From an uncultured Pelagibacteraceae bacterium (GTDB lineage: Bacteria > Pseudomonadota > Alphaproteobacteria > Pelagibacterales > Pelagibacteraceae): DNA of 64,000 bases. Of the stretch, positions 32,809 through 34,522 are shown piece after piece. Under the pieces are notes generated by a model. The model worked only from the letters and a program-made list of their open reading frames with translations, ran no database searches and was not told where the DNA came from. A program made the translations under genes and the position numbers. The stretch is taken from positions 62,001 to 126,000 of the forward strand of contig CABZCF010000002.1 of the NCBI GenBank assembly GCA_902524235.1. The letters are read 5' to 3'. The stretch's first letter is position 1, and the number at the start of each line of letters is the position of its first letter.

Positions 32809-33084
32809 CTAAATTTCAACTTTTTCCGATCTCAATAATCGGAGTTTTTTCTTAATTCCACCTGTACCAGAATAACCTCCTGGAGCTCCATCAGACCTAA
32901 TCACTCTATGACAGGGTATTTTTGGGGCATATGGGTTTCTAGCACATGCATTAGCCACAGCACGTGCTGATTTAGGGCTTTTTATGCCCAAAGCCACTTG
33001 TTTATATGTTTTAACTTTGCCTTTTGGAATAGTTTTTAGATATGTCCAAACTTTTATTTGAAATTTAGTTCCTCTAGGTACCAT
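32809..33084 (-). CDS. Minimal methylated-DNA-[protein]-cysteine S-methyltransferase domain protein (91 aa; start MVPRGTKF)
   Basis: PCHRVI active-site motif, GGYSGTGGIKKKLRLL. The track start at 33168 would read through the terminator hairpin. Confidence 0.88.
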   Translation of the reverse strand: MVPRGTKFQIKVWTYLKTIPKGKVKTYKQVALGIKSPKSARAVANACARNPYAPKIPCHRVIRSDGAPGGYSGTGGIKKKLRLLRSEKVEI

Positions 33085-33090
33085 AATGTG

Positions 33091-33133
33091 AAAAAACCCT
33101 GTTTCCTTGTACCTTTTCAGGCACAAAGAACAG
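33091..33133 (-). terminator. Intrinsic terminator, minus strand
   Basis: CTGTTCTTTGTGCCT-GAAA-AGGTACAAGG-(A)-AACAG then GG-TTTTTT; 15 bp with one bulge. Confidence 0.8.
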
Positions 33134-33276
33134 TAGTTTTGGCACGTCGTTTTAGGCGCTACCGCCATGCCTTGCCACTCCGCTATTTTAGCGCTACTCC
33201 GCAGAGCTTTCTGCCCCCTAGGCTTGAACCTCTCGGTTTTTCCCCAGTTGGTCAGTTAAGAGTTGCCTCTTAAGTT
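33091..33276 (-). ncRNA. Novel structured RNA candidate, about 186 nt; sRNA or riboswitch/attenuator-like leader upstream of the methyltransferase
   Basis: About 53% GC over 33121-33270; -10 TATAAT (33288-33283, minus); hairpins 33256-33273 (GCAA loop), 33201-33214, 33181-33193, 33155-33166; 15-bp GAAA-capped terminator hairpin. Confidence 0.65.
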
Positions 33277-33282
33277 AAAATC

Positions 33283-33288
33283 ATTATA
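33283..33288 (-). promoter_or_regulatory. Perfect -10 (TATAAT) for the candidate RNA; no good -35
   Basis: ATTATA on plus = TATAAT on minus, 10 nt upstream of the first hairpin. Confidence 0.45.
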
Positions 33289-33361
33289 CAAATTTATGTT
33301 AAATGATGTTATCACTTAATAATTGATTATTTAAGTTACTAACATTGTTAATAAAAATACA

Positions 33362-33547: not shown

Positions 33548-33576
33548 TTGACATTTAAAATGTGATATATTATAGT
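33548..33576 (+). promoter_or_regulatory. Candidate sigma70-like promoter of the integrase gene
   Basis: TTGACA (33548-33553), 17-nt spacer, TATAGT (33571-33576). Confidence 0.65.
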
Positions 33577-33602
33577 TTCCGATAATTAATGGTTATCGGA
33601 AA
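33576..33602. repeat. 10-bp perfect inverted repeat, 7-nt spacer, immediately upstream of the integrase
   Basis: TTTCCGATAA-TTAATGG-TTATCGGAAA. Confidence 0.9.
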
Positions 33603-33607
33603 TAAAT

Positions 33608-34522
33608 ATGAATAATTTGATCACTGATGTAAAATATCTTGAATTAGAAACTTTAAAGAATTTAAAAAATTCTAAAGCTCACAATACTTTAAGGGCATAT
33701 CAGGCTGACTTTAAAGATTTTATGAAGTTTTGTTTAAAAAATAATTTTAATTCTATGCCAAGTGATCCAAAAATTATAGCTTTATACCTTACTCATTTGA
33801 GCTCTTTCTCTAAATTTAGCACTTTAAAGCGTAGATTAGCTTCAATAAAAGTCATTCATAGATTAAAAGGGCATTATATAGATACAAAACATCCAGTAAT
33901 TGCTGAGAATTTAATGGGTATTAAAAGAAAAATGGGTGTAAAACAAATATCAAAGAAACCAATATTAATCAATGATTTAAAATTAATTATTAATGTAATT
34001 AATCAAGATAAAAGTGAATATAAAAAATATCAAAATAGAGCATTAATATTAATAGGATTTGCAGGAGGGTTTAGAAGATCAGAATTGGTATCAATTCAAT
34101 ATGAAGATATAGAATTCGTTAATGAAGGTGTAAAAATATTAGTGCAAAGGTCAAAAACTGATCAGACAGGACTTGGAATGACCAAAGCTATCCCCTACTT
34201 TCAAAACAGATACTATTGTCCAGTAACATCCTTAAAAAATTGGATTAATCATGCAAAAATTAGTGAGGGTAAAATTTTTAATATATCCGATAAAACAGTG
34301 GCACTTACAATACAAAAATACGCGCTTTTAGCAGGATTGGATAAAACAAGATACGCAGGTCATAGTTTAAGGTCTGGTTTTGCAACATCAACAGCTGAAA
34401 CCGGAGCTGATGAGAGGAGTATCATGGCAATGACAGGTCATAAAACTAATCAAATGGTTAGAAGATATATACAAGAAGCAAATTTATTCAAAAATAATGC
34501 ATTAAATAAGATCAAAATTTAA
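33608..34522 (+). CDS. Tyrosine-type site-specific recombinase/integrase
   Basis: GGFRRSEL (Arg I), RSKTDQ (Lys), HSLRSGFA (HxxR), TGHKT (His), RRYIQ (Tyr). Confidence 0.92.
   Translation: MNNLITDVKYLELETLKNLKNSKAHNTLRAYQADFKDFMKFCLKNNFNSMPSDPKIIALYLTHLSSFSKFSTLKRRLASIKVIHRLKGHYIDTKHPVIAENLMGIKRKMGVKQISKKPILINDLKLIINVINQDKSEYKKYQNRALILIGFAGGFRRSELVSIQYEDIEFVNEGVKILVQRSKTDQTGLGMTKAIPYFQNRYYCPVTSLKNWINHAKISEGKIFNISDKTVALTIQKYALLAGLDKTRYAGHSLRSGFATSTAETGADERSIMAMTGHKTNQMVRRYIQEANLFKNNALNKIKI

What the first reader, a model, noticed from the sequence alone, without database searches (positions are those of the whole stretch)
33091..33288. GC-rich structured RNA with its own -10 and an intrinsic terminator, ending 6 nt before a methyltransferase start codon
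Seen: 33121-33270 is about 53% GC by hand count (79/150) in an otherwise very AT-rich sequence. On the minus strand it reads TATAAT, then TTAAGAG-GCAA-CTCTTAA, GCAGA-AAGC-TCTGC, CGCTA-AAA-TAGCG, GGCG-GTAG-CGCC, and finally CTGTTCTTTGTGCCT-GAAA-AGGTACAAGG-A-AACAG-GG-TTTTTT, a 15-bp hairpin with one bulge plus a U-tract. Minus-strand polarity is supported by two GNRA loops and by a G-U pair that would be an A-C mismatch on plus. The U-tract ends at 33091 and the methyltransferase ATG is at 33084. Known: structured RNAs stand out as GC-rich islands in AT-rich genomes, and riboswitches/attenuators often end in a terminator just before a gene. Inference: about 186-nt undescribed RNA, either stand-alone sRNA or cis-regulatory leader. 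I could not match it to tmRNA, RNase P, SRP, 6S, glycine, SAM-II/V or cobalamin RNAs.
Basis: partly seen in the sequence, partly recalled or inferred. Interest (0 to 1): 0.87.

Follow-up and report, generated by a model that had tools for sequence, protein, structure and literature searches.

The report
Known IMES-2 RNA in SAR11 bacteria
The structured RNA is real, but it is a copy of IMES-2, an RNA family already catalogued from ocean DNA; it behaves as a free-standing RNA gene of SAR11 bacteria and not as a switch for the DNA-repair gene next to it.

Summary
33139-33280 (minus strand) is a GC-rich, strongly folding RNA gene with a -10 box and an intrinsic terminator, 6 nt from the ogt start codon. 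It is not undescribed: Rfam IMES-2 (RF02035) matches over its full length at 149.3 bits (gathering 54.7). Comparative analysis of 84 copies gives P1-P4 (the Rfam structure) plus a covarying loop-loop helix between P3 and P4 that the printed Rfam structure line lacks. The host is SAR11 (Pelagibacteraceae). IMES-2 is single-copy, confined to that family here, and missing from many members, including most closed same-genus genomes searched. It lies in four unrelated gene neighbourhoods, with a conserved upstream region but different terminators, and ogt persists without it. A cis-regulatory role for ogt is therefore rejected. The best reading is a free-standing, compactly folded RNA acting in trans, probably with a protein partner. 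Hfq and CsrA were not found in seven genomes searched; the partner is unknown. In passing: the adjacent lone tyrosine recombinase and palindrome at the GC-skew maximum look like a single-recombinase Xer/dif system, where a 2009 survey reported none in P. ubique.

The parts
33139..33280 (-). IMES-2 RNA core (Rfam RF02035, model positions 1-141)
   Evidence: cmscan 149.3 bits, E 5.9e-39, full length
33256..33273 (-). P1 hairpin, GCAA loop; GNRA kept in relatives as GCAA/GUAA/GCGA
   Evidence: 99.8% of cells paired, 5 of 7 pairs with changes on both sides in 76 distinct sequences
33211..33255 (-). P2, two-part stem with an inner GAGA-loop hairpin
   Evidence: 99.2% of cells paired, 8 of 10 pairs with changes on both sides; same pairs in the Rfam structure line
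33177..33207 (-). P3 stem; large loop holds GCGCU
   Evidence: 98.0% of cells paired, 6 of 6 outer pairs with changes on both sides
33141..33171 (-). P4 stem; large loop holds AGCGC
   Evidence: 99.5% of cells paired, 5 of 8 pairs with changes on both sides
33190..33194 (-). P3-loop half (GCGCU) of the P3-P4 loop-loop helix
   Evidence: 96.4% of cells paired with the P4 loop; GCGCU/AGCGC, GCACU/AGUGC, GUACU/AGUAC, GUGCU/AGCAC, UCGCU/AGCGA
33156..33160 (-). P4-loop half (AGCGC) of the P3-P4 loop-loop helix
   Evidence: as above
33091..33136 (-). intrinsic terminator (hairpin plus U-tract 33091-33096), outside the Rfam model
   Evidence: conserved in the window's genus; unrelated hairpins take its place in other gene contexts
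33283..33288 (-). -10 box TATAAT, with ATAACA 18 nt upstream (33307-33312)
   Evidence: promoter scan 10 of 12 (5 sites found, 4.4 expected by chance, so weak alone); position conserved upstream of homologues
33310..33317 (-). conserved upstream element AAGTGATA
   Evidence: kept upstream of nearly all IMES-2 copies aligned, in all four gene contexts (AGCGATA or GGAGATA in the most divergent genera)
32809..33084 (-). neighbouring gene, not part of the RNA: ogt-like methylated-DNA cysteine methyltransferase domain (91 aa)
   Evidence: PF01035 E 3e-31; TIGR00589

Best explanation
33091-33288 (minus) is a free-standing RNA gene, the SAR11 copy of the IMES-2 family. It is transcribed from its own promoter just upstream of 33276 and ended by an intrinsic terminator, giving an RNA of about 185 nt. 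The RNA folds into P1 and P2 placed end to end, P3 and P4, with the P3 and P4 loops paired to each other, leaving almost no free single strand. Shown by computation: family membership, the fold including the loop-loop helix, single copy, restriction to Pelagibacteraceae in the genomes searched, and independence of the neighbouring gene. Inferred: transcription itself, and that it acts in trans as the scaffold or decoy of an RNA-binding protein (or another folded-RNA function) and not by antisense pairing. Identity about 0.97, free-standing gene about 0.93, protein-bound trans action about 0.5.
For: Full-length Rfam match far above the gathering score. Four unrelated neighbourhoods carry the same RNA and upstream element: xer/small ORFs - RNA - ogt in the window's genus; mnmA-like gene - RNA - convergent unknown gene in genera g8, g9, g12; SNase-domain gene - RNA - convergent SRAP gene in g5; a fourth in g11. 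Terminator hairpins sit at the same place but differ in sequence between contexts. ogt persists without the RNA in six same-genus genomes. Linkers are short: 0 nt between P1 and P2, 3 between P2 and P3. Loop-loop helix covaries. Neither Hfq nor CsrA found in 7 genomes by Pfam model, with positive controls.
Against: No expression data were available here. In the window's genus ogt follows within 0-10 nt of the U-tract in nearly every copy, so read-through into ogt may still matter there. Only about half of the g8/g9/g12 copies passed my simple terminator test (11 of 22); their U-tracts are imperfect. Many same-genus genomes lack the RNA, so it is not essential. A protein partner is inference.
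Confidence: 0.65

Rival explanations
1. Cis-regulatory leader (riboswitch or attenuator) of ogt: the terminator is the expression platform and a ligand or alkylation signal allows read-through.
For: Terminator ends 6 nt before the ogt ATG; in the window's genus ogt is the next gene in nearly every copy.
Against: In g8, g9, g12, g5 and g11 the RNA is not upstream of ogt and mostly faces a convergent gene. ogt is kept without the RNA in G006, G012, G019, G022, G024, G028. In G025 a small ORF separates them. Terminator sequence is replaced wholesale between contexts while the core is conserved, so no antiterminator pairing with it can be conserved.
Confidence: 0.04
2. Trans-acting antisense small RNA that base-pairs with mRNAs.
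For: Free-standing gene with intrinsic terminator, the usual architecture of such RNAs.
Against: The conserved core is nearly all paired and its loops pair with each other, leaving no obvious free seed; Hfq not found by Pfam search.
Confidence: 0.25
3. A stand-in for 6S RNA, binding RNA polymerase.
For: Rfam 6S not found in 61 relatives while 5 of 14 controls, Caulobacter among them, rang; similar length and a free-standing gene.
Against: No long single hairpin with a central bubble; no 6S match even at E 10. Relatives without IMES-2 have no detected 6S either, so one does not replace the other.
Confidence: 0.08

Closest known systems
IMES-2 RNA motif (Rfam RF02035)
   Same: Full-length match on the same strand; same P1-P4 structure line.
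   Different: The terminator and promoter lie outside the Rfam model. The P3-P4 loop-loop helix is not in the structure line that cmscan prints; I could not check whether the original description drew one.
6S RNA (RF00013)
   Same: Free-standing RNA of similar length.
   Different: Different architecture, no match.
SAM-II and SAM-V riboswitches and other cis elements of Pelagibacter (PMC2704228)
   Same: GC-rich island in an AT-rich SAR11 genome, the signal used in that study to find RNAs.
   Different: Those precede fixed genes; this one does not.

Membership tests
IMES-2 (RF02035) | covariance-model score above the gathering score over the full model | tested here: met
   149.3 bits against 54.7, positions 1-141 of 141
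IMES-2 (RF02035) | P1-P4 consensus structure | tested here: met
   97.4% of cells paired in 76 distinct sequences, 33 of 42 pairs with changes on both sides
IMES-2 (RF02035) | marine bacterial origin | tested here: met
   Pattern matches in genome contigs carry SAR11/Pelagibacteraceae titles; in the class sample only members of the window's family rang
cis-regulatory riboswitch or attenuator of ogt | constant position upstream of the regulated gene | tested here: not met
   four different gene contexts
cis-regulatory riboswitch or attenuator of ogt | ligand binding that changes termination | not testable with these tools
   needs in-line probing or transcription assays
6S RNA | match to the 6S covariance model | tested here: not met
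   no match up to E 10 in 33070-33330
Hfq-dependent antisense sRNA | Hfq in the host | tested here: not met
   PF17209 found in 0 of 7 genomes, 5 controls positive; a divergent Hfq is not excluded
CsrB-type decoy RNA | CsrA in the host | tested here: not met
   PF02599 found in 0 of 7 genomes, 3 controls positive

The most novel reading that the evidence does not exclude
IMES-2 is a SAR11-specific, kissing-loop folded RNA of a so far unknown ribonucleoprotein, expressed under a conserved upstream signal (AAGTGATA plus tandem DnaA-box-like 9-mers) that has moved with the RNA between at least four chromosomal sites, and lost from many lineages: a regulatory RNA class in one of the most abundant bacterial groups of the ocean, in a host where Hfq and CsrA are not detected.
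Probability: 0.3. Interest if true: 0.6.

Novelty: already known. Interest (0 to 1): 0.3.

Why it matters
The locus itself is an annotated kind of RNA, so it is not a discovery. What the check adds: hosts of the family, including three single-contig genomes (G061, G064, G068); evidence from gene context that it is a free-standing RNA; a covarying loop-loop contact; and the pattern of absence, which would help choose an organism for the first functional test. SAR11 is among the most abundant bacterial groups in the sea, so the function of a structured RNA common there is worth knowing.

Tried and rejected
Considered and left open: tandem DnaA-box-like 9-mers about 75 nt upstream (TTATCCACA/TTATCCCCA then TTCACA; degenerate in the window itself). 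The RNA is not at the skew-predicted origin in the two carrier genomes I checked, so an origin link is not supported; in G068 it sits near the terminus because xer does, in G061 (303 kb) at neither. Led nowhere: literature searches for IMES-2 found only a squid genome paper listing it as environmental contamination (PMC6962438); the 2009 paper I believe described the motif is not held. One structure string of wrong length and one protein reference in a wrong frame were my errors and were corrected.

Full report
What is there. It folds 5.5 standard deviations better than shuffles.

Identity. A scan of the window against Rfam 15 gives one match here: IMES-2, RF02035, minus strand 33139-33280, 149.3 bits against a gathering score of 54.7, model positions 1-141 of 141. 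No other family comes near, even at E 10. My recollection, not checked because the paper is not held, is that IMES-2 was described in 2009 from marine environmental sequences without a function.

Host and distribution. The Rfam model finds it in 21 of 61 close relatives, the window's genome included, 200 of 397 of the order sample, and 3 of 385 of the class sample, all three in the window's family. Every row with a match lists one match. It occurs in genera g1, g5, g8, g9, g11 and g12 of the family and in no genome of the sister family f2 that is listed with a match. Absence from G012, G062, G063, G066, G070 and G072, closed or nearly closed same-genus genomes, holds with a second model built here; G067 gives only a chance-level hit, E 0.66. 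Single-contig genomes G061, G064 and G068 do carry it.

Structure. On 23 diverse sequences the comparative structure pairs 97.4% of cells, with covariation 0.53 against 0.21 in shuffles and at most 0.10 when slid; on 84 sequences the result is similar, 0.42 against 0.18, with the caution that that alignment was fitted to P1-P4. The loop-loop helix was not part of the model used to align, and its first test was on a plain MAFFT alignment. The P3 loop GCGCU and P4 loop AGCGC change together: GCACU/AGUGC, GUACU/AGUAC, GUGCU/AGCAC, UCGCU/AGCGA, with one end pair lost in a subgroup (UCGCU/AGCGC, 14 rows). Three of five pairs show changes on both sides. The pairing was noticed by eye on these sequences before it was counted, so the count is support and not an independent discovery test; the slid controls bear on that. 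P1 and inner P2 loops keep the GNRA form in most sequences.

Free-standing gene. Flanking genes fall into four contexts (names): A, window genus, mostly a divergent tyrosine recombinase and small ORFs upstream (a DUF2938 gene in some), ogt downstream; B, genera g8, g9 and g12, mnmA-like gene upstream and usually a convergent unknown gene downstream; C, g5, SNase-domain gene upstream and convergent SRAP gene downstream; D, g11, other genes. The terminator is replaced by an unrelated hairpin between contexts, and a simple test for hairpin plus T-run passes 51 of 55, 11 of 22, 3 of 3 and 1 of 1. The upstream element AAGTGATA and the -10 region stay with the RNA. Six same-genus genomes keep ogt without it, with other sequence directly upstream. 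The RNA is thus not a leader of ogt.

How it probably works. The conserved core is almost fully paired, P1 and P2 abut, and the large loops pair with each other, so it looks like an RNA that works through its shape. Hfq and CsrA models find nothing in seven genomes while controls ring. I commit to a protein-bound, trans-acting RNA at about 0.5; antisense pairing is the main rival. Nothing here tests the partner.

Verdict. Already known as a family; the additions are host, context, loop-loop covariation and loss pattern. Interest 0.3.

In passing. The recombinase gene beside the RNA is the only PF00589 gene found in G000, G004, G012, G062, G064 and G068 (G061 has two, and the sister-family genome G037 has two). 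A 27-31 bp palindrome lies beside it in the window, G012, G062 and G068, but the strict scan did not find one in G061 or G064. In the four closed genomes sampled, the gene lies within one sampling step (60-69 kb) of the start of the sample with the highest cumulative GC skew: G012 617 against 603 kb, G062 674 against 660, G061 774 against 720, G068 1338 against 1311. The samples cover about a third of each chromosome, so the maxima are coarse. A caution on one figure: the script took equal steps, so G068's last-but-one sample is labelled 1311 kb where it truly began at 1325 kb if it was the last one, or 1242 kb if it was the one before (regions); either way the gene is within about 100 kb. A 2009 survey states that P. 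ubique has no dif/Xer system (PMC2731167).

Noticed in passing
window 33575-33604 and 33608-34522; G012 617603, G062 674664, G068 1338526: Lone tyrosine recombinase gene next to a palindrome (consensus TACTATTGATAACAATTAATTATCATTAGTA) near the GC-skew maximum in 4 of 4 sampled closed genomes (palindrome found in 3): looks like a single-recombinase Xer/dif system in SAR11, although PMC2731167 reports none in P. ubique. The protein scores far below the XerC, XerD and XerS cut-offs.
   Followed up: partly
about 75 nt upstream of IMES-2 in relatives (e.g. L160, L162, L177); degenerate in the window: Tandem DnaA-box-like 9-mers (TTATCCACA or TTATCCCCA followed by TTCACA-like) conserved upstream of the RNA across gene contexts.
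   Followed up: partly
61 relatives of the window genome, families f1 and f2: No 6S RNA found by the Rfam model (stricter filters), while 5 of 14 controls ring.
   Followed up: no
L005 and L026 (G025, G019): A small ORF of about 58 aa (M.S.DGEIPA.WFLI...) sits between IMES-2 and ogt, or directly before ogt where the RNA is missing; in other genomes a relative of it lies upstream of the RNA.
   Followed up: no
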